Shown piece after piece: positions 7,741 through 29,322 of a stretch of DNA of 64,000 nucleotides. Numbering within the stretch: the first letter of the stretch is position 1; the number at the start of each line of letters is the position of its first letter. A model generated the notes under the pieces. That model was not told where the DNA came from. It searched no databases and saw nothing but the letters and a program-made list of their open reading frames with translations. Made by a program: the position numbers and the translations under genes. The stretch is from Chromatiales bacterium (GTDB lineage: Bacteria; Pseudomonadota; Gammaproteobacteria; SpSt-1174): contig JABURS010000043.1 of the NCBI GenBank assembly GCA_014762505.1, forward strand, positions 248,001 to 312,000, read 5' to 3'.

Positions 7741-9301
<1,561 letters not shown>

Positions 9302-18014: not shown

Positions 18015-19076
18015 TTACGGGCGCACGTCCTCGCGACGCGGGAACATCACCAGGTGGTCGATGTCGAGGCGGATCTTCATGCGTGCGCCGACCTCGTAGT
18101 CGTAGTGACTGTGGGCCAGTGACAGCACCTTGACGCCGCTCTGCAGGCGCAGGGTGTAGAGGAACTGGGCCCCGCGAAAGGCCTTGTCCAGCACCTCGGC
18201 CGGCAGGTCGGCGTTGTCGTCGTGCACGATGTCGTCCGGACGCACCAGGATGTCGACCTGGCAGCCCTTGCCGCAGAATGCCGGCACCTCCCCCTCGATG
18301 ATGCCGAGTTCGGTCTCCACCTGGTGGGGGTTGAGCACCGTGCCCGGCAGCAGAACCCCCTGGCCGATGAAGTCGGCCACGAAGCGGTTGGCCGGCTGGT
18401 GATACAGCTGGTAGCCGTTGGCCCACTGCTGCAGCTCACCCGCATTGATCACGCCGATCTCGTCGGCCATGGCGAAGGCCTCGAACTGGTCGTGGGTGAC
18501 CAGTAGGCCGGAGATGCCCTCCTGCTTGAGGATCGCGCGCACCTCGCGCGCGAGTCCCTCGCGCAGCTCCACATCCATGCTGGAGAAGGGTTCGTCCATG
18601 AGCAGCAGCTTGGGGCGGGGCGCCAGCGCCCGGGCCAGGGCGATGCGCTGCTGCTGGCCGCCGGAGAGCTGGTGCGGGTAGGCCTTGCCGTAGGCGGGCA
18701 GGCCCACGAGCTGCAGCAGCTGGGTGACACGGTCCTTGCGCTCGCCCACCGACTGCTGGCGGATGCCGAAGGCGATGTTCTCCTCCACGGTGAGGTGGGG
18801 AAACAGCGCGAAGTCCTGGAAGACCATGCCGACCTGGCGCTTCTCCGGCGGCAGGGCGTAGCCCGCGCGGCTCACCACCTCGCTGGCGAGATAGATCCAG
18901 CCCGAGGCCACCGGCTCGAAACCGGCGATGGCGCGCAGCAGGGTGGTCTTGCCGCAGCCGCTCGGCCCCAGCAGGCAGCCGATCATGCCCTCCTCCAGCT
19001 GGAAGGAGACCTCGTGCACCACGTGGCGCCTGCCGTAGGCGATGCTTACCTTGTCCAGTTCAAGCAGCGTGCTCAT
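18015..19076 (-). CDS. fbpC: Ferric iron ABC transporter ATP-binding protein
   Basis: A 353-residue ATPase that powers uptake of periplasmic Fe(III) through FbpB. Visible motifs are Walker A GPSGCGKTT (about residues 37-45), the Q-loop, the ABC signature LSGGQQQR, Walker B LLLMDEPFSSMD and the switch His in VTHDQ. The C-terminal 120 residues form a TOBE-like regulatory domain. It is the last gene of fbpABC, and its ATG lies 17 bases inside the end of fbpB. It converges on the chemoreceptor gene with 9 bases between stops. Such importers are usually Fur-repressed; a Fur-like box lies ahead of fbpA. Confidence 0.92.
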   Translation of the reverse strand: MSTLLELDKVSIAYGRRHVVHEVSFQLEEGMIGCLLGPSGCGKTTLLRAIAGFEPVASGWIYLASEVVSRAGYALPPEKRQVGMVFQDFALFPHLTVEENIAFGIRQQSVGERKDRVTQLLQLVGLPAYGKAYPHQLSGGQQQRIALARALAPRPKLLLMDEPFSSMDVELREGLAREVRAILKQEGISGLLVTHDQFEAFAMADEIGVINAGELQQWANGYQLYHQPANRFVADFIGQGVLLPGTVLNPHQVETELGIIEGEVPAFCGKGCQVDILVRPDDIVHDDNADLPAEVLDKAFRGAQFLYTLRLQSGVKVLSLAHSHYDYEVGARMKIRLDIDHLVMFPRREDVRP

Positions 19077-20754
19077 GGCCCGGTCTCGATCGACTGATGG
19101 AACGGCTGAGGATGATCACCGGGACGATCCCCGCCACGACGATGGCGAGCGCCGCCGTGGAGGCGTCGGCCAGCCGCTCGTCGGAGGCCAGCTCGAAGGT
19201 GCGCACCGCCAGGGTGTTGAAGTTGAAGGGCCGCAGTATCAACGTCGCCGGCAGCTCTTTCAAGACATCGACGAATACCAGCAGTATCGCCGTGAGCAGC
19301 GTGCCGCGCATGATCGGCATGTGGATCTTGCGCAGTACCTGGCGCGGCGGCATGCCCAGCGAGCGGGCGGCGTCGTCCATGGTGGGGCGGATCTTGCCCA
19401 GGCCCGCCTCCACCGTCTGGATGGACACGGCCAGGAAGCGCACGGTGTAGGCGAACAGCAGCGCGACCAGGGTGCCGCTCAGGATCAAACCGGTGGAGAT
19501 GCCGAACTGGGCGCGCATCCAGGCATCGATGGCATTGTCCGTCCAGGCGAAGGGCAGCATCACCCCCACGGCGATGACCGTGCCGGGCACGGCATAGCCC
19601 ATGGCGGCGACGCGCACCGAGGCGACCATCAGCGGCGTGGGGCGCAGGCGCTTGCCATAGCCCATGAGCAGGGCGAGCCCCACGGCGATCAGGGCCGCGA
19701 GGCTCGCGAGCATCAGGCTGTTCCAGGTCAGCGCGATGAAGTCCGCATCCACCATGGTCCCGGCGGTCTGCCAGGCCCAGACGGCGAGCTGGCCCGCGGG
19801 CACCACGAAGCCCAGCAACAGGGGCAGCAGGCAGGCCAGCAGGGCCAGCGCGAGTCGCGTGCCGCTGAGGCGATGGCGGGGCAGCTGCAGGTAGCGGTTG
19901 CTGGTGTGGTGGAAACGGGCACGGCGCCGTGACCAGCGCTCCAGCACGATGAGCAGGAAGACGAAGCCCATCAGTAGGGCCGAGAGCTGGGCGGCGGCGG
20001 CGCTGTCGCCCAGGCCGAACCAGGTGCGGAAGATGCCCGTGGTGAAGGTGCTCACGCCGAAGTACTGCACCGTGCCGTAGTCGGCCAGGGTCTCCATCAG
20101 GGCCAGCGACAGGCCGGTGATGATGGCGGGGCGGGCCAGCGGCAGGGCCACGCGGAAGAAGCTCGCCCAGGGGCCGAGGCCCAGGGTGCGGCTCACCTCC
20201 AGGACGCAGACCGACTGCTCGAGAAAGCCCGCGCGCGCCAGCAGGTAGACATAGGGATAGAGCACCAGCGAGAGCATGGCGATGGCCCCGCCCAGCGAGC
20301 GGATCTCGGGGAACCAGTAGTCGCCATAACCCCAGCCGAAGGCCTCGCGCAGGGCATCCTGTATCGGGCCCTCGAAGCCGAGCATGCCCGTGTAGGTGTA
20401 GGCGATGATGTAGGCCGGCACGGCCATGGGCAGCAGTAGCGCCCATTCGAAGAAGCGTCGCCCCGGGAACTCGCACATGCTGGTGAGCCAAGCCGTGCTG
20501 ATGCCCATCGTCAGCGTGCCGATGGCCACGCCGACCATCAGCAGCAGCGAGTTGACGACGTAGTCGGCGAGCACCGTCTCGGCCAGGTGGCGCCAGACGT
20601 CGCCGGCCGGATAGAAGATGAAGCTGAACACCACCAGCACCGGCAGCGACAGCAGCAGGGCCGTCGCCACCACGCCCACGCCCCAGGCGTCCGGCAGGGC
20701 CAGACGCCTGGGGCGGGTCACGGGTTGTGGTGATGCCACCGGGTTCGGATTCAT
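19060..20754 (-). CDS. fbpB: Ferric iron ABC transporter permease (fused two-copy type)
   Basis: A 564-residue inner-membrane permease built of two fused homologous halves, as in FbpB/SfuB. About twelve hydrophobic segments are visible. An EAA-type cytoplasmic loop occurs in each half (LEVSRTLGLGPWASFFRVALPLARPAI and MDDAARSLGMPPRQVLRKIHMPIM), where FbpC docks. The ATG at 20754 is used; a TTG at 20772 is also possible. The end overlaps fbpC by 17 bases. The leader between fbpA and fbpB carries a strong hairpin likely to lower permease yield relative to the binding protein. Confidence 0.92.
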   Translation of the reverse strand: MNPNPVASPQPVTRPRRLALPDAWGVGVVATALLLSLPVLVVFSFIFYPAGDVWRHLAETVLADYVVNSLLLMVGVAIGTLTMGISTAWLTSMCEFPGRRFFEWALLLPMAVPAYIIAYTYTGMLGFEGPIQDALREAFGWGYGDYWFPEIRSLGGAIAMLSLVLYPYVYLLARAGFLEQSVCVLEVSRTLGLGPWASFFRVALPLARPAIITGLSLALMETLADYGTVQYFGVSTFTTGIFRTWFGLGDSAAAAQLSALLMGFVFLLIVLERWSRRRARFHHTSNRYLQLPRHRLSGTRLALALLACLLPLLLGFVVPAGQLAVWAWQTAGTMVDADFIALTWNSLMLASLAALIAVGLALLMGYGKRLRPTPLMVASVRVAAMGYAVPGTVIAVGVMLPFAWTDNAIDAWMRAQFGISTGLILSGTLVALLFAYTVRFLAVSIQTVEAGLGKIRPTMDDAARSLGMPPRQVLRKIHMPIMRGTLLTAILLVFVDVLKELPATLILRPFNFNTLAVRTFELASDERLADASTAALAIVVAGIVPVIILSRSISRSRPGHEHAA

Positions 20755-20773
20755 GGGCTGCAGCAAACGCAAA

Positions 20774-20792
20774 GGGGGCGCATTGCGCCCCC
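20774..20792 (-). terminator. Attenuator-like hairpin between fbpA and fbpB
   Basis: GGGGGCG and CGCCCCC arms with a 5-base loop are followed on the minus strand by TTTGCGTTT. The T-run is interrupted, so it should stop only part of transcription or stabilise the fbpA message. It sits just before the fbpB start. Confidence 0.65.
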
Positions 20793-20821
20793 GGGCAAGA
20801 ATGCCTGCAGTTTACCAGACA

Positions 20822-21844
20822 TCATTTCCAGCCGGCACGATCCATCAGCATCAGTGCCTCGGCATTCAGCTCGCCGAGCCTGCCCATGTTGACGGCGTCG
20901 GCCATGAACTGACCCCAGTCTTCCAGCGTATCGCTCCAGGCCACGCCTTCCAGCACCGGATATTCGTGGTTGGTCTCGGCATACCAGCGCTGGGACTCGG
21001 CCTTGCTCATGAACTCCAGCAGTTTGATGGCGTTGGCCTTGTTGCGGGATGCGGCCGTCACGCCGGCGCCGCTCACGTTGACGTGCGTACCGCGGTCTGC
21101 CTGGTTGGGCCAGAACACGCCGACCTTCTCCGCGGCCTCACGCTGGGTGGCATCCGAGCCGTTGAGCATCATGGCCAGGTAGTAGGTGTTGGCGATGGCG
21201 ATGTCGCAGCGACCGGCCGCGGCGGCACTGATCTGGTCGCGGTCACCCCCGCGCGGTGGCTGGGCGAAGTTGGCGACGAAGTCGCGGGCCCAGGACTCGG
21301 TGGTCTTGACGCCGTTGCTCGCGATCATCGAGGCGACCAGCGACTGGTTATAGATGTTGCTGGAGGAGCGGATGCAGATGCGGCCCTTCCACTTCGGGTC
21401 GGCCAGGGCCTCGTAGGTGGAGAGTTCGGCGGGGTCGACCTTGCCCTTCACGTACATGATGGGTCGGGCACGCAGCGACAGGCCATACCAGTAGCCATCC
21501 GGGTCGCGGTAGCTGGCGGGGATGGCGTTCTCGAGCACGGTCGATGTGATCGGCTGCAGCACGCCGGCCTCTCTGGCGCGGTGCAGGCGGCCCGCATCGG
21601 TGGTCAGCAGCAGGTCGGCCGGGGTGTTGCGGCCCTCGGACTGCAGGCGCTGCAGCAGGGCATCGGCCTTGCCGGTGACCAGGTTGACCTCGATGCCGGT
21701 TTCCTTGGTGAAGCGTTCCAGCAGGGGCTTGATGAGCTCTTCCTTGCGCGCGGAGTACAGGTTGACCTCTTCGGCCGCCTGGGCGGCGGCGCCAAACAGG
21801 CCCAGGGCCAGCAGACCGGCCAGCATCAGAAAACGACTACGCAT
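20822..21844 (-). CDS. fbpA: Ferric iron periplasmic binding protein
   Basis: A 340-residue Fe(III)-binding protein of the FbpA/FutA family. The signal peptide ends AAAQA (about residue 23). The mature protein begins EEVNLYSARKEELIKPLLERF, typical of the family. A region with clustered tyrosines (SNIYNQSLVASMI, NTYYLAMM) would supply iron ligands in the cleft. It is the first gene of fbpABC, with GGGAG before the ATG. A Fur-box-like sequence lies about 55-70 bases upstream, so iron repression is expected. Confidence 0.93.
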   Translation of the reverse strand: MRSRFLMLAGLLALGLFGAAAQAAEEVNLYSARKEELIKPLLERFTKETGIEVNLVTGKADALLQRLQSEGRNTPADLLLTTDAGRLHRAREAGVLQPITSTVLENAIPASYRDPDGYWYGLSLRARPIMYVKGKVDPAELSTYEALADPKWKGRICIRSSSNIYNQSLVASMIASNGVKTTESWARDFVANFAQPPRGGDRDQISAAAAGRCDIAIANTYYLAMMLNGSDATQREAAEKVGVFWPNQADRGTHVNVSGAGVTAASRNKANAIKLLEFMSKAESQRWYAETNHEYPVLEGVAWSDTLEDWGQFMADAVNMGRLGELNAEALMLMDRAGWK

Positions 21845-22024: not shown

Positions 22025-22717
22025 TCAGACCTTGATGTAGGTCCAGCCGTCGCGCATCCGCTCGATGATGTGCTCCACGGCAGAGGGCGCGGTATGGGTC
22101 CTGGGCAACAGCACCACGTCGACGCCGGCGCGCTCCAGGTGGCGGATGGCGGTGTCGCAGGCAATGAACTGGAGTTCCTCGTGCTCGGCCATCATGGCCA
22201 ACACGCGCTGGCCGTAGGGGGAGCCGCCCGCGCGCAACATGTGCAGTCCCTCGCTGTTGGCCACCACCTCGATCTGCACGCCCTGTTCGCGGTATTCCTC
22301 GAGCAGCGACTCGGCACGGTCGAGCGTGGCCTGCATCTTGGCCGGTTCGGCCGTGGCGATGTGCAGGAGGATGCGCGGTGCCTGTTCCGCCGTCGCCACC
22401 TGCTGCAGGGGGCTGGTGCTGTGATGGTTGGCCAGCCAGCCGCCGGAAAAGCCCAGTGAGATCAGCAGGGCGGCAGCGACGCCGAAGGCCGCCAGGCGCT
22501 TGCGCGGATGGTTCGTGTCGACGACCTCGCGGCGAGGTGCCTCCACCCCGTCATAGGCATGGCGCACGAGGTCCTTGAGGTTGCGCAGCTCGACGTACTC
22601 GGCGCGCAGGGCCGGGTCCTTTTCCATGTCGAGCAGGAAGGCGTCACGCTCCTGGTGGCTGAGTTCGCCATCCAGGTAGGCATGAATACGCGCTTCGTCG
22701 CGAACACTCTCGGTCAT
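22025..22717 (-). CDS. Transmembrane anti-sigma factor with periplasmic DsrE-like domain
   Basis: A 230-residue protein. Residues 1-60 look like a short cytoplasmic anti-sigma domain (EARIHAYLDGELSHQERDAFL), without the zinc-binding HxxxCxxC. One membrane helix lies at about 75-96. Residues 115-230 form a DsrE/DsrF-like domain (ILLHIATAEPAKMQATLDRA, GVQIEVVANSEGLHML, FIACDTAI with Cys187), which would face the periplasm. Its ATG overlaps the sigma stop (ATGA), the normal arrangement for a cognate pair. The DsrE half is clearly similar to the secreted protein encoded divergently at 23679, including the Cys. A sensor role for this domain is inference. A terminator follows. Confidence 0.75.
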   Translation of the reverse strand: MTESVRDEARIHAYLDGELSHQERDAFLLDMEKDPALRAEYVELRNLKDLVRHAYDGVEAPRREVVDTNHPRKRLAAFGVAAALLISLGFSGGWLANHHSTSPLQQVATAEQAPRILLHIATAEPAKMQATLDRAESLLEEYREQGVQIEVVANSEGLHMLRAGGSPYGQRVLAMMAEHEELQFIACDTAIRHLERAGVDVVLLPRTHTAPSAVEHIIERMRDGWTYIKV

Positions 22718-23277
22718 TTAACCCTCCTCAGATGAGGTCTGCCCGCCTCGGTGGCGGCGGCTGCAGGCATGTACAGATCGGTGAGAAACCCGGTCAGGGC
22801 GCGACGGGCCCGACACAGGCGGCTCATCACCGTCCCAACCGGGATGTCGAGTATCTCGGCCGTCTCGGCGTAGGCAAAGCCTTCGAGATCCACCAGTGTG
22901 AGCACCTCGCGCTGGCCAATGGGCAGTTTGCCCACGGCGCGGCGTACACGGTTGACGATCTCCTGGCTGGTCATCTCGACTTCGGGGCAATTCTCGCAGA
23001 CGAACATCTCGTCGTCGATCTCCACCCCGGGCTTCTGCCGGCGCAGGTGTTCCCGCCAGGTGTTGCTGAGGATGGCGCTGAGCCAGTGCTCGAGCTTGTT
23101 GCCATCACGCAGCTGGTGGCTCTTCTGCATGGCCTTGATCAGGGTGTCCTGTACCAGGTCGTCGGCCAGCATGGGGTCGCCACACCAGGCCAGGGCCATG
23201 CGGTACAGCCGCGTTCGACTGGCCTCCAGTTTCTTCTTGAACGTGCGCGTCGCACAGATGTGCTCGAGTACTTTCAT
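22714..23277 (-). CDS. ECF-type RNA polymerase sigma factor
   Basis: A 187-residue extracytoplasmic-function sigma factor. Region 2 is at about residues 20-85 (RMALAWCGDPMLADDLVQDTLIKAM, then LEHWLSAILSNTWREHLR). Region 4 is at about 110-165 (LPIGQREVLTLVDLEGFAYAETAEILDIPVGTVMSRLCRARRAL), which binds the -35 box. The last 20 residues are a basic tail. It is followed directly by its anti-sigma factor. A candidate promoter GGAATA-N16-CATCAT lies just ahead. The same motif lies ahead of the divergent DsrE-like gene, consistent with autoregulation and a shared regulon. Confidence 0.93.
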   Translation of the reverse strand: MKVLEHICATRTFKKKLEASRTRLYRMALAWCGDPMLADDLVQDTLIKAMQKSHQLRDGNKLEHWLSAILSNTWREHLRRQKPGVEIDDEMFVCENCPEVEMTSQEIVNRVRRAVGKLPIGQREVLTLVDLEGFAYAETAEILDIPVGTVMSRLCRARRALTGFLTDLYMPAAAATEAGRPHLRRVK

Positions 23278-23294
23278 CTCTCCACCTACCCTGC

Positions 23295-23322
23295 ATGATG
23301 CGTCGCCGGTTTTCTCTATTCC
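23295..23322 (-). promoter_or_regulatory. Candidate ECF promoter of the sigma operon
   Basis: Minus strand: GGAATA (23322-23317), 16 bases, CATCAT (23300-23295). The start site would fall about 11 bases before the sigma ATG, with a GGTGGAGAG ribosome site between. Both hexamers and the spacing match the copy at 23582-23609. Confidence 0.6.
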
Positions 23323-23581
23323 CGCTCTTGTGCGTGCATGGCTAGCGCGATGGCGGTTTTGCGACGTGGTTTGTCTGTCGGTGACTTCAGTAGTGGCGTA
23401 TTTCCTTTGCCAGCGAACGAGTCTACCGCCAGCGGCGTCGCATCGAAAGAAACAGAAGTATGTAAGAAACTTCTAATCTTCTAAGACTCCTTCGATATGG
23501 CGGTGTTTTTTCTGCTTTGAGTAACGAGAGCGTGATTGTTGCGATTCACCTGTGGCAAGGATGGCGTGTCGAGCAAGGAAA

Positions 23582-23609
23582 GGAATATTTGTGATCCGGC
23601 GTGCGTCAA
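23582..23609 (+). promoter_or_regulatory. Candidate ECF promoter of the DsrE-like/porin genes
   Basis: GGAATA (23582-23587), 16 bases, CGTCAA (23604-23609). The spacing equals that of the minus-strand copy, and both spacers contain CCGGCG. It would give a leader of about 60 bases before the 23679 start. Confidence 0.6.
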
Positions 23610-23678
23610 TTCGTCGTGGATGCAGAACAGCGCATGCATGTACGCCAGGGAAATCATCAACAACAACAGAGGCAGACA

Positions 23679-24134
23679 ATGAAACGCCACACCTTTTTCG
23701 CTGCGTTTTTCGCAGTGTTCTTGATTGCTGTCAGCGGTGCGTCGAGCGCTTTCGCAGCAGAGACCTCCTCCAAGCCATTCGCCGAAAAGCATGTCGTGCT
23801 GCAGATATCGGACGAAGATCCCTTCAAGCAGACGCTCGTGCTCAATGTGGCCAACAACCTCATCAAGCACTACGGTCCCGACAAGGTCGACATCGAGATC
23901 GTGGCCTTTGGGCCTGGTCTGAGATTGCTGTTTTCCGATAACGCAAACAGGGGGCGCATTGGCGATCTTTCACAGCAGGGGGTGCGGTTCGCCGCCTGTG
24001 AAAACACGATTGCCAACATGTCGCGCATCCTGGGCGAAGAACCGGTGTTGAACGACAAGGCCGTGCGGGTCTCTGCCGGCGTGGTGCGCATCCTGGATCT
24101 TGAGGCCGATGGGTACACGCTGATTCGTCCGTGA
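23679..24134 (+). CDS. Secreted DsrE-family protein
   Basis: A 151-residue periplasmic protein. The signal peptide ends near residue 27 (VSGASSAFAAE). The mature part is a DsrE-like alpha/beta fold: HVVLQISDEDPFKQTLVLNVANNL, VDIEIVAFGPGLRLLF, then GVRFAACENTI with Cys107. Cytoplasmic relatives carry persulfide on such a cysteine; a periplasmic role is not established. It is homologous to the periplasmic half of the anti-sigma factor encoded divergently, with the motif F-x-A-C-[DE]-x at the same place. The start MKRHTFF is chosen for the signal peptide; the open frame extends upstream without one. A porin follows. Confidence 0.8.
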   Translation: MKRHTFFAAFFAVFLIAVSGASSAFAAETSSKPFAEKHVVLQISDEDPFKQTLVLNVANNLIKHYGPDKVDIEIVAFGPGLRLLFSDNANRGRIGDLSQQGVRFAACENTIANMSRILGEEPVLNDKAVRVSAGVVRILDLEADGYTLIRP

Positions 24135-24200
24135 TCCAGGCTCGGGTTCTGCGCGCATATGCAGAGAAGGAAAAAGAAAAATATTGGGGAGTTAGATTTC

Positions 24201-25574
24201 ATGTTGAAAGCAAAAAGACTGGCTGGCGCGATGGCGCTGGCCCTGGGGATGGCCGCGGCAGGTCAGGTGCAGGCAGCGAACTGGGTGATGTTGCAGGGTA
24301 CGGAGGCGGATGGCATGGGCGAGCGGGCGAAGCTGTGGGGATTCCTGCAGCCGACCTATCGCTCCACTGACGGTACCGTGCTGCCTGCAGGACCATGGGA
24401 AGGGCAGCCCATGCAGCCCAACATGATTCCCACCGACCTGAGTTCGGATTCGCAGTTCCAGCTGTTGCGAGCCCGCATCGGCGTACGTGGCGTGGCAATG
24501 CCGATCGACAGCAAGGTGAATTATTTCCTGCTGGCGGAATTCGGTGACAACGGTATTACAGCCGGCAAGGGCGGGGCGGGCGTGATCTCCGATGCCAGCG
24601 TGACGCTCAATCACATTCCGGGTGCGCGCGTTCGCCTGGGTCTCTTCAAGACGCCGATGAGCGAGGAGATCTTCCAGGGCGTGGGGACGATGGACTATGT
24701 CAACTTTACCGCCTTTACCGATCAGCAGCTCAACGAGCGGCACCTGCCAACCGATGGGTTGGCGCCCTGTAATGCTGCAGCCGATGATGCATATCTGCGC
24801 TATTGCGAGGAGGGCAACACCTTCAGCGACTTCGGTGCGGCTCGCGATACCGGGGCCATGGTCTTCGACGCCTTCCGCCGTGGCGACTGGGAGCATACCT
24901 ATGCCGTGATGCTCGGCAACGGCAGCGGTGTGAACGCCGGGAATACCGATGACAACCTCGATACCCGTGCCTACTGGTCATCCGAGTGGATCTTCGGCGG
25001 TCAGGGGCCGCGTCGCGAGGGCTGGAAGCTCTATGCCTGGATGCATGACGGCAAGCGTACCGTGCTTGACAGTGTGCAGCTGGCCGCAGGCAACCGGGTC
25101 GAGAACGAATACGACTACGAGCGCTCCGGTGTGGGTACTACCTACCGTCGTGGCAAGTACCGTTTCTTCGCCGAGTACAACCAGGCCGAAGGCATGATCT
25201 TCAACGGTACCGACGGCGGGGCCGTGGCGGGTTCGGTGAATAACGCGGGCACCGCGGTATCCACCTTAAATCTCCTGCCGGAGGACAAGGCGAACGGTTA
25301 CTACCTCGATTTCGGTTACAAGATCACACCAAAGGTCGAGCTGGATGTGCGCTATGACGTGCTGAATCGTGGTACGGAGACCGACGTGGAAGAGCGTAAG
25401 TTCGAGACCGTGACACTCGGCGCCCAGTACTTCTTCAACCGCAAGTCGCGCCTGATCGTGAACTACGAGATGCGTGACCTGGAAGCACCCAATCTGCCGG
25501 CCAATGCCGTGCCGAACCAGATCGGTGAGGCCATCGATGATCGCCTGTCCGTCCAGGTCTTCATGGTCTTCTAG
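24201..25574 (+). CDS. Outer-membrane porin (phosphate-selective OprO/OprP-like barrel)
   Basis: A 457-residue barrel. The signal peptide ends GQVQA. Alternating strands are visible throughout (SKVNYFLLAEFG, ARVRLGLFKTPMSEEI, KYRFFAEYNQAEGMIF, KVELDVRYDVLNRG). The C-terminal residue is Phe (LSVQVFMVF), needed for BAM insertion. The GLFKTPMSEE region resembles phosphate-selective porins O and P, but the solute is not known. GGGAG lies 10 bases before the ATG. It lies 66 bases after the DsrE-like gene with no terminator between them, so both are probably expressed from the ECF-type promoter. A strong terminator follows. Confidence 0.85.
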   Translation: MLKAKRLAGAMALALGMAAAGQVQAANWVMLQGTEADGMGERAKLWGFLQPTYRSTDGTVLPAGPWEGQPMQPNMIPTDLSSDSQFQLLRARIGVRGVAMPIDSKVNYFLLAEFGDNGITAGKGGAGVISDASVTLNHIPGARVRLGLFKTPMSEEIFQGVGTMDYVNFTAFTDQQLNERHLPTDGLAPCNAAADDAYLRYCEEGNTFSDFGAARDTGAMVFDAFRRGDWEHTYAVMLGNGSGVNAGNTDDNLDTRAYWSSEWIFGGQGPRREGWKLYAWMHDGKRTVLDSVQLAAGNRVENEYDYERSGVGTTYRRGKYRFFAEYNQAEGMIFNGTDGGAVAGSVNNAGTAVSTLNLLPEDKANGYYLDFGYKITPKVELDVRYDVLNRGTETDVEERKFETVTLGAQYFFNRKSRLIVNYEMRDLEAPNLPANAVPNQIGEAIDDRLSVQVFMVF

Positions 25575-25784: not shown

Positions 25785-28103
25785 TCAGGCCAGGGTGCCG
25801 GGCGTGTACTCGAAGAGTTGCGGGCGCGGCATGGGGCGGGCGAACAGGTAGCCCTGGTAGGCATCGCAGCCGGCGGTCTCGAGGAAGTGATGCTGCTCCT
25901 TCGTCTCCACTCCCTCGGCGATGATCTCGAGATTGAGGGAGTGCCCCATGGCGATGATGGCGTGGATGATGGCGGCATCGCTGGGGTTGAGCAGCACATC
26001 GCGGACGAAGGAGGTGTCGATCTTGACCTGGTCCAGCGGCAGGCGCTTGAGGTAGGAGAGCGAGGAGTAGCCGGTGCCGAAGTCGTCCATGGAGAAGCGC
26101 AGCCCCAGTTCGCGCAGCTGGTGAATCTTCCCCGCGATCTCCTTCGGGTCACCCAGCACCACGGTCTCCGTGAGTTCCAGCTTGATCAGCCGCGGGTCGA
26201 CACCGGTCTCTTCCAGGATGCGTGTCACGCGCTGGATGTAATCGTTCTGGTGGAACTGACGGGCGCTGACATTGACGGCGATGCTGCGCGGCGGTTGCGG
26301 CTGATGCCGGTTCCAGTCGATGGTGGTGAGGCAGGCGTGCTCAAGGACCCAGTCACCGATCGGGACGATGAGGCCGGTCTCCTCGGCCAGCGGGATGAAG
26401 GTGGCGGGCGAGACCGGCGCCTCGTCGGCAGGCAGCCAGCGCAACAAGGCCTCGGCACCGATGAGATTCCCGGAGCGGTCGATCTGTGGCTGGTAGTGCA
26501 GTTCGAGTTCGTCGTTTTCCAGGGCATTGGCCAGGGTCGCCTCGAGCGAGGCGCGTTGCTCGACCACGCGCTGCATGCGCGGGTTGAAGAAGACGGCGGT
26601 GTTGCGTCCCGCCGACTTGGCGGCATAGAGGGCCATGTCGGCCTGTTTGAGCAGGTCTTCCAGCGGCGTACCCTGTCCCTGGAACAGGGTGATGCCAATG
26701 CTCGGGGTGATGCGGTAGGCGCGTATCACGCCGAGGTCATAGGGCTCGCTCAGGTGATGACGGATCTTTTCCGCAATGTCTTCCGCCTGCCGGGTCGCGG
26801 TTGTCGCGTTGCTGTCCAGGGCCTCGAGCAGGATGACGAACTCGTCGCCGCCGAGGCGGGCGATGGTGTCGACCTCGCGCACCAGCATGCGCAGGCGCTG
26901 CGCGATCTGCACCAGCAGGGTGTCGCCGGCGTCGTGTCCGCGCGTGTCGTTGAGCGTCTTGAAACGGTCGAGATCGATCATCAGCACCGCGCCGCGATCG
27001 CCGGAACGGTTGCTGGTGGCCAGGGCATGAGCCAGCCGGTCGTGCAGCAGGCGGCGGTTGGCCAGGTGCGTGAGCGGATCGTAGAAGGCCAGCTGGTGGA
27101 TGCGGCGCTCGGCGTCCTTGCGGTCGGTGATGTCGGAGAAGGCCGCCACGTAATGCGTGGTCTCGCCGGCATCGTTGCAGACCTCGCTGATGGAGAGCCA
27201 TTCGGGGTAGACGCTGCCGGACTTGCGCCGGTTCCAGATCTCGCCTTCCCAGTAGCCGCGCTCGTGGATGGCCCGCCACATGTCGGCATAAAAGGCCGGG
27301 TCGTGACGCCCCGACTGCAGGATGCGCGGGGTCTGGCCGACAACCTCTTCCGGGGCATAGCCGGTGATGCGGGTGAAGGCGCGGTTGACCTGCTCGATGC
27401 GGCCATCGCGGTCGGTGATCATGATGCCTTCCTGCGACTCGAAGGCCACGGCAGCAATGCCCAGGCGCTCCTCGCTCTGCTTGCGACGGGTGACGTCCGT
27501 GTGCGTGCCCATCACCCATTCGGGACGGCCGTCGGCGTCGCGGGTGATCACCTGGCCGCGATCGTGTATCCAGACCCAGTGTCCCTGCCGATGGCGCATG
27601 CGGAACTCGATGTCGTAATGATCCAGCTCGCCGGAGAAGTGGCGCTGGAGCAGTTGCTCGGCACGGGGGAGGTCGTCCGGATGCGTGAGGCGGCGCCAGG
27701 TCTCGATGTCCGTGGGTTCGAGTTCCTCCAGCGTGTAGCCAAGGATGCCGGCCCAGCGCTCGTTGAAGATGGTCTGGCCGGTGAGGACGTTCCATTCCCA
27801 GGTCCCGGCACGGGTGCCATCGATGATGGCCGCCAGGCGCCGTCGCTCATCGCCGAGTGCCTGGCGCGCCTCGTCGGTGTGGCGGGACTCGTGGCGGACC
27901 ATGAGGTACACGAACAGGATGGAGAGCAGGACGAAGACGAGGCCCTTGGTGCTCTGCACATGACGCATCTGTTCGATACTCAGAGGCGCCAGGCTCACGA
28001 CCCAATCGGACAGCAGGATCCAGCCCGTGCCGAACAGGCCGTAATACAGGGCGCAGCGTCCGGCGATGCCGAGGCGATGTAGCAGGATCGGGCTGGGTAT
28101 CAT
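25785..28103 (-). CDS. PAS-PAS-GGDEF-EAL cyclic-di-GMP protein
   Basis: A 772-residue membrane protein that can in principle make and break c-di-GMP. Two N-terminal hydrophobic segments (GRCALYYGLFGTGWILLSDWVV and GLVFVLLSILFVYLMV) precede two PAS domains (about residues 75-190 and 200-320). The GGDEF motif is intact (ARLGGDEFVIL), and an RxxD inhibitory site lies exactly five residues before it (REVD). The EAL domain keeps EALLRW, NVSARQF, ELTET, DDFGTGYSS, KID and EGVET. Both activities therefore look possible. The start at 28103 is chosen because the longer frame runs into the divergent gene. PAS ligands are not predictable. Confidence 0.93.
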   Translation of the reverse strand: MIPSPILLHRLGIAGRCALYYGLFGTGWILLSDWVVSLAPLSIEQMRHVQSTKGLVFVLLSILFVYLMVRHESRHTDEARQALGDERRRLAAIIDGTRAGTWEWNVLTGQTIFNERWAGILGYTLEELEPTDIETWRRLTHPDDLPRAEQLLQRHFSGELDHYDIEFRMRHRQGHWVWIHDRGQVITRDADGRPEWVMGTHTDVTRRKQSEERLGIAAVAFESQEGIMITDRDGRIEQVNRAFTRITGYAPEEVVGQTPRILQSGRHDPAFYADMWRAIHERGYWEGEIWNRRKSGSVYPEWLSISEVCNDAGETTHYVAAFSDITDRKDAERRIHQLAFYDPLTHLANRRLLHDRLAHALATSNRSGDRGAVLMIDLDRFKTLNDTRGHDAGDTLLVQIAQRLRMLVREVDTIARLGGDEFVILLEALDSNATTATRQAEDIAEKIRHHLSEPYDLGVIRAYRITPSIGITLFQGQGTPLEDLLKQADMALYAAKSAGRNTAVFFNPRMQRVVEQRASLEATLANALENDELELHYQPQIDRSGNLIGAEALLRWLPADEAPVSPATFIPLAEETGLIVPIGDWVLEHACLTTIDWNRHQPQPPRSIAVNVSARQFHQNDYIQRVTRILEETGVDPRLIKLELTETVVLGDPKEIAGKIHQLRELGLRFSMDDFGTGYSSLSYLKRLPLDQVKIDTSFVRDVLLNPSDAAIIHAIIAMGHSLNLEIIAEGVETKEQHHFLETAGCDAYQGYLFARPMPRPQLFEYTPGTLA

Positions 28104-28200
28104 GCAAGCTTGCCGGTGTAGTGGGCCGGACTGGTAGTGGCCTCGGCCCGGCGTGAGTGTATGCGGGGAGTATATACATATCCTGCCCCGGGTATCAGCG

Positions 28201-28225
28201 CCACACGGCTTGAGCCGCCGTGTGG
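28201..28225. promoter_or_regulatory. Inverted repeat between divergent c-di-GMP genes
   Basis: Perfect 9-bp arms CCACACGGC and GCCGTGTGG flank TTGAGCC in the 178-base divergent region. A TATATACATA stretch beside it (28172-28181) may be a -10 for the minus gene. An operator serving both genes is possible. Confidence 0.45.
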
Positions 28226-28281
28226 TATCGCGTAGTTTCAGGCTCAGTAGAGACGGCTGATTACAAGGGGTGGTTCCAGAC

Positions 28282-29322
28282 ATGACCCATGATTGCCAAT
28301 GCCACTCGGGCAGACGGCGGCTGCGTATCCGCTTTGCGGAGGCGGGGGCCGTGCCCGCGGTGGTGCATACGGCGGCAGCCAAGCTCGGGTGGGAGACGGT
28401 GGCCGACGGGCGTTCCTTTGATCTGGAGATCGGGGGAGGGGCGCGCTTTTCCAGCCCGGCGGAGCTGGCGGTCTATCTGCGCGAGATCGCCGCCGAGGCC
28501 TTCGATGGGATGGATGCCCAGTGGTTCGACGGTGAGGGGCAGCCGGCAGAACCCCTGTCGAAGAACCTGGCCGGCTTCGATACCAACCCGCTCTATGCCC
28601 TGCTGGAGGAGCGGCGGCTGGCCACCTGGTTTCAGCCGGTCTTCGACCACGACCTCCGGGTATGGGGTTACGAATGCCTGGTGCGCGCCCACGACGCGGA
28701 CGGCGAACTGATCACGCCGGATCGTCTCATCGGCTGGGCGCGGGACGAGAACCTGCTGTTCTACTTCGACCGGATCTGTCGCGAGACCCATGTCGCCAAT
28801 GCGGCGGTCGCCCAGGCGCCGGCTGATGCCCGCTTTCTCATCAATTTCCTGCCGACCACCATTTACGAGCCCACCGTCTGTCTGCGCACCACGTTGAAGG
28901 CCGTGGAGCAGGCGGGACTTGCCAAGGAGCGGGTGATCTTCGAGGTGGTGGAAAGCGAGAAGATCGAGGATGCCGCACACCTGCGCCGCATCCTCGACCA
29001 TTATCGCGAGAGCGGATTCGGTGTCGCCCTGGACGACCTGGGCACCGGGCATTCCGGCCTGTTCCTGCTGGCCGAGCTCGAGCCGGACCTCATCAAGCTC
29101 GACCGCGAACTGGTCGCACGCGTGGCGGACTCGCGCATCCACCGCTCCATCTGCCGCAGCATCATCGATCTCGGCCGGGAGGAGGGGAAGCTGGTGCTGG
29201 CCGAAGGGATCGAGACAGCCGAGCAACACGCGATGCTGCTCGAACTGGGGGCCGACCTGTTCCAGGGGTTCTACCTCGGCCGCCCGGCTGCCGAGCCGGC
29301 GCTCTCCGCATTGATCGACTGA
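28282..29322 (+). CDS. EAL-domain cyclic-di-GMP phosphodiesterase (ECL variant)
   Basis: A 346-residue soluble protein. The first 85 residues are a small unrecognised domain. The EAL domain spans about 95-340. The signature reads YECLVRA rather than EALxR, so Glu is kept but Ala-Leu becomes Cys-Leu. Other catalytic residues are present: Asn in INFLPT, Glu in FEVVESE, DD in LDDLGTGHSG, Lys in LIKLDR, Glu in AEGIET and Gln in FQGFYLGRP. Activity is therefore plausible. It is encoded divergently from a GGDEF-EAL gene. An AGGGG ribosome site supports ATG 28282. Confidence 0.88.
   Translation: MTHDCQCHSGRRRLRIRFAEAGAVPAVVHTAAAKLGWETVADGRSFDLEIGGGARFSSPAELAVYLREIAAEAFDGMDAQWFDGEGQPAEPLSKNLAGFDTNPLYALLEERRLATWFQPVFDHDLRVWGYECLVRAHDADGELITPDRLIGWARDENLLFYFDRICRETHVANAAVAQAPADARFLINFLPTTIYEPTVCLRTTLKAVEQAGLAKERVIFEVVESEKIEDAAHLRRILDHYRESGFGVALDDLGTGHSGLFLLAELEPDLIKLDRELVARVADSRIHRSICRSIIDLGREEGKLVLAEGIETAEQHAMLLELGADLFQGFYLGRPAAEPALSALID

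What the first reader, a model, noticed from the sequence alone, without database searches (positions are those of the whole stretch)
23295..23609. Same ECF promoter motif in both directions: GGAATA-N16-CRTCAW
Two outward copies with equal spacing lie before the sigma operon and before the DsrE-porin genes; both spacers contain CCGGCG. This defines a testable regulon: autoregulated sigma, secreted DsrE protein, porin.
Basis: seen in the sequence. Interest (0 to 1): 0.75.

Follow-up and report, generated by a model that had tools for sequence, protein, structure and literature searches.

The report
Sulfur-linked sigma factor's divergent promoters
Two matching promoter sequences sit back to back between a gene switch and the genes it probably controls; related bacteria keep the same signal at this spot and some also have it in front of sulfur-oxidation genes, so this looks like a small sulfur-sensing circuit with an unusual sulfur-protein-like sensor.

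Summary
GGAATA-N16-CRTCAW occurs twice in the 64 kb window, only at 23295-23322 (-) and 23582-23609 (+); 0.01 is expected. In relatives the motif lies upstream of the orthologous sigma gene in 18 of 22 loci and upstream of dsrE in 11 of 14 genes from genomes with the sigma system, but in 0 of 10 dsrE genes from genomes without it. The shared CCGGCG is not conserved (3 of 23 sites), nor is the trailing AW.

The regulon idea holds and grows. In the window's own genome the motif also precedes a YeeE/YedE sulfur transporter and a second exported DsrE. In some relatives it precedes soxX, soxB and YeeE. Full-length anti-sigma homologues occur almost only in SoxB-bearing genomes (17 of 18 versus 19 of 76).

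The promoter is the ECF26-type consensus (-35 GGAAT, -10 CGTC) published for sulfite-responsive RpoE4/SigE. What departs is the sensor: the anti-sigma carries a predicted periplasmic DsrE-fold domain with an invariant cysteine, paralogous to the secreted DsrE. I propose an autoregulated periplasmic sulfur-responsive switch. Promoter and regulon are well supported by comparative sequence; signal and cysteine mechanism are inferred.

The parts
23295..23322 (-). Predicted ECF promoter of the sigma/anti-sigma operon: GGAATA-N16-CATCAT
   Evidence: equivalent site within 160 bp of the sigma start in 18 of 22 loci
23582..23609 (+). Predicted ECF promoter of the dsrE-porin genes: GGAATA-N16-CGTCAA
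   Evidence: equivalent site within 350 bp of dsrE in 11 of 14 genes from sigma-bearing genomes, 0 of 10 from others
22714..23277 (-). ECF sigma factor, 187 aa (regions 2 and 4)
   Evidence: Pfam PF04542 3e-13 and PF08281 1e-17; 41% identical to the sigma factor of a DUF305-linked locus on a Methylorubrum plasmid
22025..22717 (-). Anti-sigma factor, 230 aa: N-terminal helical domain (weak zf-HC2 match), one predicted TM helix (about 73-97), C-terminal DsrE-fold domain (about 113-230, probably periplasmic) with invariant Cys187; start overlaps the sigma stop by 4 bp
   Evidence: Cys187 in 21 of 21; AlphaFold2 model; 1l1s Z 19.1; E. coli YchN 14.3; TusD 13.0; DsrE 12.9; profile match to the secreted DsrE family, E 1e-32
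23679..24134 (+). Secreted DsrE-family protein, 151 aa, probable signal peptide, invariant Cys107
   Evidence: Cys107 in 28 of 28; profile of the family matches 1l1s, E 1e-30; no Pfam or NCBIfam match for this copy
24201..25574 (+). Putative outer-membrane porin, 457 aa, 66 bp after dsrE and probably co-transcribed; no curated family match
   Evidence: homologue beside dsrE in most relatives with enough flank

Best explanation
The two sites are divergent promoters of one ECF sigma factor. Leftward, the sigma transcribes its own sigma/anti-sigma operon (positive autoregulation with coupled production of its inhibitor). Rightward, it transcribes dsrE and porin. Without signal, the cytoplasmic N-terminal domain of the membrane-bound anti-sigma holds the sigma. 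The anti-sigma's periplasmic DsrE-fold domain, through its invariant cysteine, senses reduced or sulfane sulfur (directly, or passed on by the secreted DsrE protein, its paralogue) and releases the sigma. The output is handling of reduced sulfur in the periplasm: DsrE proteins, a porin, YeeE/YedE-type sulfur transporters and, in some relatives, SoxX and SoxB. Shown by sequence comparison: sites, conservation, regulon members, domain architecture, invariant cysteine, co-occurrence with SoxB. Inferred: that this sigma reads these sites, the topology, the signal and the release mechanism.
For: Motif above chance in the window. Kept at the same two places: 18 of 22 sigma genes and 11 of 14 dsrE genes in sigma-bearing genomes against 0 of 10 dsrE genes elsewhere (Fisher 1.5e-4 for the dsrE contrast). 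Stricter GGAATAAA-N13/14-CGTC: 35 matches in 21 genomes against 10 for the reversed control; the genes downstream include sigma, dsrE, porin, SoxB, SoxX, YeeE/YedE and a YeiH-like transporter. Sox regions: 14 motif hits in 269 kb (18 regions) of sigma-bearing genomes against 2 in 313 kb (20 regions) of others. In G084 six of 39 genome-wide matches lie in one 18 kb sox region (binomial 1e-7), before soxX (followed by soxZ and soxA), soxB and YeeE among others. Full-length anti-sigma and SoxB co-occur: 17 of 18 against 19 of 76 (Fisher 6e-8). DsrE fold of the anti-sigma C-terminal domain and invariant Cys187. Published -35 GGAAT/-10 CGTC for sulfite-linked ECF26 sigma factors (PMC6527743, section 12).
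Against: No transcript data. The window genome's own soxB lacks the motif in its 300 bp upstream, as do 15 of 18 soxB genes in sigma-bearing genomes in all, so sox control is at most lineage-specific. Four of 22 sigma genes lack the site with this pattern (L010, L036, L023, L024; L023 has a TGTC variant), two of them among the three copies in G082. Three of 14 dsrE genes lack it. Genome-wide hits include many inside ORFs. Some hits precede genes with no clear sulfur role (BepA-like protease, fatty-acid hydroxylase). In G082 the pattern's excess over the reversed control is only 31 against 16. Two motif hits occur in sox regions of genomes without the full-length anti-sigma, one upstream of a SoxX-like gene in G066. 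Nothing here measures the signal.
Confidence: 0.75

Rival explanations
1. The circuit is a general envelope or redox stress response rather than a sulfur response: the anti-sigma DsrE cysteine senses oxidants or electrophiles, and the porin and thioredoxin-like or protease targets are the main outputs.
For: In G084 the motif precedes a BepA-like envelope protease and a thioredoxin-fold protein, in G082 a DsbD; ECF systems commonly serve envelope stress (general knowledge).
Against: Co-occurrence with SoxB (17 of 18 against 19 of 76), enrichment in sox regions, YeeE/YedE and DsrE targets in the same genome, and the published sulfur link of the same consensus.
Confidence: 0.2
2. The signal is sulfite, as in ECF26 RpoE4/SigE, and the DsrE domain binds or reacts with sulfite or a sulfonated intermediate rather than sulfane sulfur.
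For: Same promoter consensus; sulfite proposed as the signal of RpoE4/SigE (PMC6527743, PMC3511301).
Against: No sulfite-oxidising enzyme was recognised among the motif-preceded genes examined; the DsrE family is known for sulfane-sulfur transfer (general knowledge). I did not search for sulfite-oxidase families directly.
Confidence: 0.3
3. A different ECF sigma in the same genome reads these sites, and this sigma only sits nearby.
For: The consensus is broad: ECF26-type sigma factors elsewhere share it, including a Methylorubrum plasmid locus (L265) with two divergent sites, and there is a hit near a 42%-identical ECF gene in G086 (L271).
Against: The site starts 45-108 bp upstream of this very sigma gene in 18 of 22 loci from many families, and 0 of 10 dsrE genes have it where the system is absent.
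Confidence: 0.07

Closest known systems
ECF26 sigma factors RpoE4/RpoE1 (Sinorhizobium meliloti) and SigE (Starkeya novella)
   Same: Promoter consensus -35 GGAAT, -10 CGTC with 1 bp spacing variation (PMC6527743 section 12); sigma followed by an anti-sigma gene; autoregulation (RpoE4, RpoE1); link to thiosulfate/sulfite metabolism. A DUF305-linked plasmid locus resembling RpoE1's has the same divergent pair of sites.
   Different: Targets here are DsrE, porin, YeeE/YedE and in some genomes sox genes; no sulfite oxidase was recognised. The outer part of the anti-sigma is a DsrE fold; the anti-sigma of the Methylorubrum locus aligned only over the N-terminal and TM part (columns 4-99). The published work calls the release mechanism unknown.
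DsrE/TusD/YchN family sulfur-carrier proteins (DsrEFH, TusBCD, MTH1491)
   Same: Fold of the anti-sigma C-terminal domain and of the secreted protein; a conserved cysteine aligns with a cysteine of 1l1s.
   Different: Characterised DsrE and TusD are cytoplasmic sulfur-transfer subunits (general knowledge); here one copy is exported and another is fused to an anti-sigma factor.
Ordinary autoregulated ECF/anti-sigma pairs (for example RpoE/RseA; general knowledge)
   Same: Sigma and single-TM anti-sigma in one operon, sigma-dependent promoter in front.
   Different: Different promoter, different periplasmic domain, sulfur-related targets.

Membership tests
ECF sigma factor with cognate anti-sigma | Sigma regions 2 and 4 without region 3 | tested here: met
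   Pfam Sigma70_r2 and Sigma70_r4_2 over the gathering scores, 187 aa, no region 3 match
ECF sigma factor with cognate anti-sigma | Adjacent anti-sigma with N-terminal sigma-binding domain and one TM helix | tested here: met
   Sub-threshold zf-HC2 and NCBIfam anti-sigma matches, helix layout in the model, N-terminal profile match to an annotated anti-sigma; binding itself not tested
ECF26-type sulfur regulators | -35 GGAAT and -10 CGTC promoter | tested here: met
   GGAATA and CATC/CGTC in the window; 18 of 22 sigma loci; published consensus read in PMC6527743
ECF26-type sulfur regulators | Formal group assignment by the ECF classification models or a tree with ECF26 references | not tested
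   The ECF classification models and the S. meliloti/S. novella sequences were not at hand; only a 41% identity to an RpoE1-like, DUF305-linked plasmid sigma
ECF26-type sulfur regulators | Control of a sulfite-oxidising enzyme | tested here: inconclusive
   None recognised among the examined downstream genes, but sulfite-oxidase families were not searched for directly
DsrE/DsrF superfamily (anti-sigma C-terminal domain and secreted protein) | DsrE fold | tested here: met
   Model of the anti-sigma: 1l1s Z 19.1, rmsd 1.6, 110 aligned; 2d1p TusD Z 13.0; 2hy5 DsrE Z 12.9. Secreted protein by profile only: 1l1s E 1.4e-30
DsrE/DsrF superfamily (anti-sigma C-terminal domain and secreted protein) | Cysteine at the sulfur-carrying position | tested here: inconclusive
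   One cysteine invariant in 21 of 21 anti-sigma and 28 of 28 DsrE proteins, aligned with a cysteine of 1l1s; equivalence to the DsrE/TusD active cysteine was not established residue by residue
DsrE/DsrF superfamily (anti-sigma C-terminal domain and secreted protein) | Sulfur-transfer activity | not testable with these tools
   Needs biochemistry

The most novel reading that the evidence does not exclude
The anti-sigma factor is a transmembrane sulfur receptor: the secreted DsrE protein, itself a product of the circuit, picks up sulfane sulfur in the periplasm and hands it to the invariant cysteine of the anti-sigma's DsrE domain, so that a sulfur-carrier relay, rather than proteolysis triggered by misfolded proteins, frees the sigma factor and switches on sulfur uptake and oxidation genes.
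Probability: 0.25. Interest if true: 0.82.

Novelty: new variant of a known kind. Interest (0 to 1): 0.6.

Why it matters
How ECF sigma factors sense sulfur compounds is described as unknown in a paper read here (PMC6527743, passages). A sensor domain of known sulfur-carrier fold with one invariant cysteine, on the anti-sigma factor of a circuit that co-occurs with SoxB across family-level representatives of one class, gives a concrete residue and a ready set of promoters to test. It also suggests a regulatory layer over sox genes in some sulfur-oxidising lineages.

Tried and rejected
CCGGCG as a shared spacer element: rejected, 3 of 23 sites. The ABC transporter genes downstream of the anti-sigma (18015-21844) as part of the system: rejected; among 21 loci searched by tblastn they are found only in L006. 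The site at 7944 as a third window promoter: set aside, inside a long ORF. Sox control in the window's own genome: not found with this pattern. Sigma-70 promoters in 23270-24210: none. PLSDB plasmids as a source of anti-sigma relatives: only DsrE-like matches over half the query in 7 Azospirillum records. Literature: searches for ECF sigma factor + anti-sigma + DsrE, extracytoplasmic function sigma + sulfur oxidation + thiosulfate + sox (33), DsrE + periplasmic + anti-sigma factor (34), DsrE + secreted + sulfur oxidation + porin + sigma factor (51), sulfane sulfur + anti-sigma (83), ECF sigma + soxB + thiosulfate oxidation (84) gave no paper that, from listings or the passages I opened, described a DsrE-domain anti-sigma; the library holds open-licence papers only. 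Papers opened: PMC3511301 (passages, section 22), PMC6527743 (passages, section 12), and passages of PMC10512742, PMC7406223 (no hits), PMC8103513, PMC7451513, PMC7787665; the rest were seen as listings only.

Rows dropped before counts: the sigma set is all 22 distinct sigma proteins found by tblastn at E up to 1e-5 in the loci used (the window's own copy included; the contig-cut L019 and the 30%-identical L007 left out; G082 gives three and G011 two). The dsrE positive set is 14 genes I chose as closest to the window's dsrE in sigma-bearing genomes (window included); distant DsrE paralogues downstream of the anti-sigma (L020, L024, L037) and the own-genome L047 were left out. The negative set is the 10 DsrE hits from genomes with no full-length anti-sigma match; one (L035) had only 153 bp upstream. 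Sigma-bearing means that the anti-sigma match reached its N-terminal half: 18 of 94 genomes; 10 further genomes matched over the DsrE domain only.

Full report
Check of the observation. The pattern GGAATA-N16-CRTCAW occurs exactly twice in the window, at 23295-23322 on the minus strand and 23582-23609 on the plus strand, where 0.01 matches are expected. The whole 2.77 Mb genome has five matches and none for the reversed control; the looser GGAATA-N15/16-CRTC has 19 against 2. The two sites face outward. The minus-strand site lies about 20 nt before the ATG of an ECF sigma gene (22714-23277), whose stop overlaps the start of an anti-sigma gene (22025-22717). The plus-strand site lies about 70 nt before dsrE (23679-24134), followed 66 bp later by a porin gene (24201-25574). 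The shared CCGGCG is present in both spacers as described but is not conserved: 3 of 23 sites.

Conservation. The anti-sigma protein was searched in 94 genomes, nearly all from different families: 28 had a match, of which 18 (own genome included) matched over the N-terminal half as well as the C-terminal domain. In most of these with enough flank the same divergent order, sigma/anti-sigma on one side and dsrE-porin on the other, is seen. Upstream of the sigma gene (160 bp) GGAATN-N15/16-CRTC occurs in 18 of 22 loci against 0.04 expected from shuffles; upstream of dsrE (350 bp) in 11 of 14 genes of sigma-bearing genomes against 0.15 expected, and in 0 of 10 dsrE genes of genomes without the full-length anti-sigma. 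The first two sets include the window itself. The spacers differ between relatives, so conservation is confined to the two elements.

Regulon. In the window's own genome, besides the two window sites, the motif lies about 105-126 nt (by start chosen) before a YeeE/YedE-type transporter gene (L038; Pfam Sulf_transp 6e-56) and 95-137 nt before a gene for a second exported DsrE protein (L047; Pfam DsrE 6e-10), and 70 nt before a fatty-acid hydroxylase gene (L051); most of the other matches lie inside long ORFs. A stricter form, GGAATAAA-N13/14-CGTC, gave 35 matches in 21 genomes against 10 for the reversed control. Downstream genes include sigma, dsrE and porin genes and, outside the locus, SoxB (L061, L086), SoxX (L075), YeeE/YedE (L068), a YeiH-like transporter (L083), a cytochrome c (L070) and a DUF302 protein (L084); others of the 35 have no evident sulfur link, and 30 of the 35 were returned as loci and examined. 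In G084, six of 39 genome-wide matches lie in one 18 kb sox region (binomial 1e-7), in front of soxX (followed by soxZ and soxA), soxB and YeeE among others. Over all sox regions fetched, sigma-bearing genomes have 14 matches in 269 kb (18 regions) and other genomes 2 in 313 kb (20 regions). The sox link is not universal: directly upstream of soxB the motif is found in 3 of 18 genes of sigma-bearing genomes and 0 of 20 of others, and regions with any match are 6 of 18 against 2 of 20. The window genome's own soxB has none. YeeE/YedE genes carry it in G000, G002, G082 and G084; all 18 sigma-bearing genomes have such a gene, and the 30 loci returned of 50 matches were scanned.

Co-occurrence. 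SoxB over its curated cut-off is found in 17 of the 18 genomes with the full-length anti-sigma and in 19 of the other 76 (Fisher 5.6e-8). The exception is G057.

The sensor. The AlphaFold2 model of the anti-sigma (mean pLDDT 84.6) has an N-terminal helical part, one long helix at 73-97 and a well-predicted alpha/beta domain at 115-230. That domain matches DsrE-family structures: MTH1491 (1l1s, Z 19.1), YchN (14.3), TusD (13.0), DsrE (12.9) (Foldseek). It is a paralogue of the secreted DsrE family (profile E 1e-32). One cysteine is invariant in both: Cys187 in 21 of 21 anti-sigma proteins and Cys107 in 28 of 28 DsrE proteins. The basic residues before the long helix suggest an N-in topology with the DsrE domain outside (inference).

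What it resembles. The published consensus for the sulfite-linked ECF26 sigma factors of S. meliloti and S. novella is -35 GGAAT, -10 CGTC, with spacing varying by 1 bp (PMC6527743, section 12 and passages read). RpoE1 and RpoE4 are activated by thiosulfate or taurine metabolism and are autoregulated (PMC3511301, section 22 and passages read). A Methylorubrum plasmid locus with a 41%-identical sigma, an anti-sigma and a divergent DUF305 gene has two divergent GGAATA-N15/16-CATC sites. Its anti-sigma aligns with ours only over the N-terminal and TM parts. Two other plasmid loci looked at (L266, L267) have no strict site. So the promoter logic is known; the DsrE-type sensor and the dsrE-porin output are what differ. 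Formal ECF26 membership was not tested.

Mechanism. Most likely the sigma drives both promoters, and sulfur chemistry at the periplasmic DsrE domain relieves inhibition by the anti-sigma. The first half is well supported by comparative evidence; the second is inference from fold, invariant cysteine and regulon. The signal could be sulfane sulfur, sulfite or an oxidant; these are the rivals.

Verdict. Confirmed observation, supported interpretation, extended to a probable sulfur circuit. New variant of a known kind.

Noticed in passing
18015-21844 (-): ABC transporter (solute-binding protein, permease, ATPase) follows the anti-sigma gene on the same strand; best NCBIfam matches are below cut-off, to aminoethylphosphonate- or polyamine-type systems. 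Kept only in the close relative L006 among 21 loci.
   Followed up: partly
L006 (DSDH01000421.1): A contig labelled Phycisphaerales carries the whole locus at 79-95% protein identity to the window, so it is probably misbinned from a relative of the window's organism.
   Followed up: no
L020, L024, L037: In some genomes a distant DsrE paralogue lies directly downstream of the anti-sigma gene on the same strand.
   Followed up: partly
L105/L028 (G092) and L077/L092 (G085): Here the gene divergent from sigma is a porin homologue (G092) or a 5'-nucleotidase/SoxB-like protein (G085), each behind the same motif, so the divergent slot can hold different outputs.
   Followed up: partly
L139:4131-5667: In G084 the motif also precedes a gene for a BepA-like outer-membrane assembly protease next to the sox genes.
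   Followed up: no
L271 (G086) near 2345 (-): A genome without the full-length anti-sigma has the same motif near an ECF gene 42% identical to the window's sigma, so related sigma factors with other sensors may read the same promoter.
   Followed up: no
L067 and L085 (G003, ends of contigs C8 and C22): The same motif sequence sits at the ends of two contigs, probably a repeat that broke the assembly.
   Followed up: no
25785-29322: A long ORF that reads like a PAS/GGDEF/EAL protein (-; by eye) and an EAL-domain protein (+; Pfam) lie next to the porin gene.
   Followed up: no
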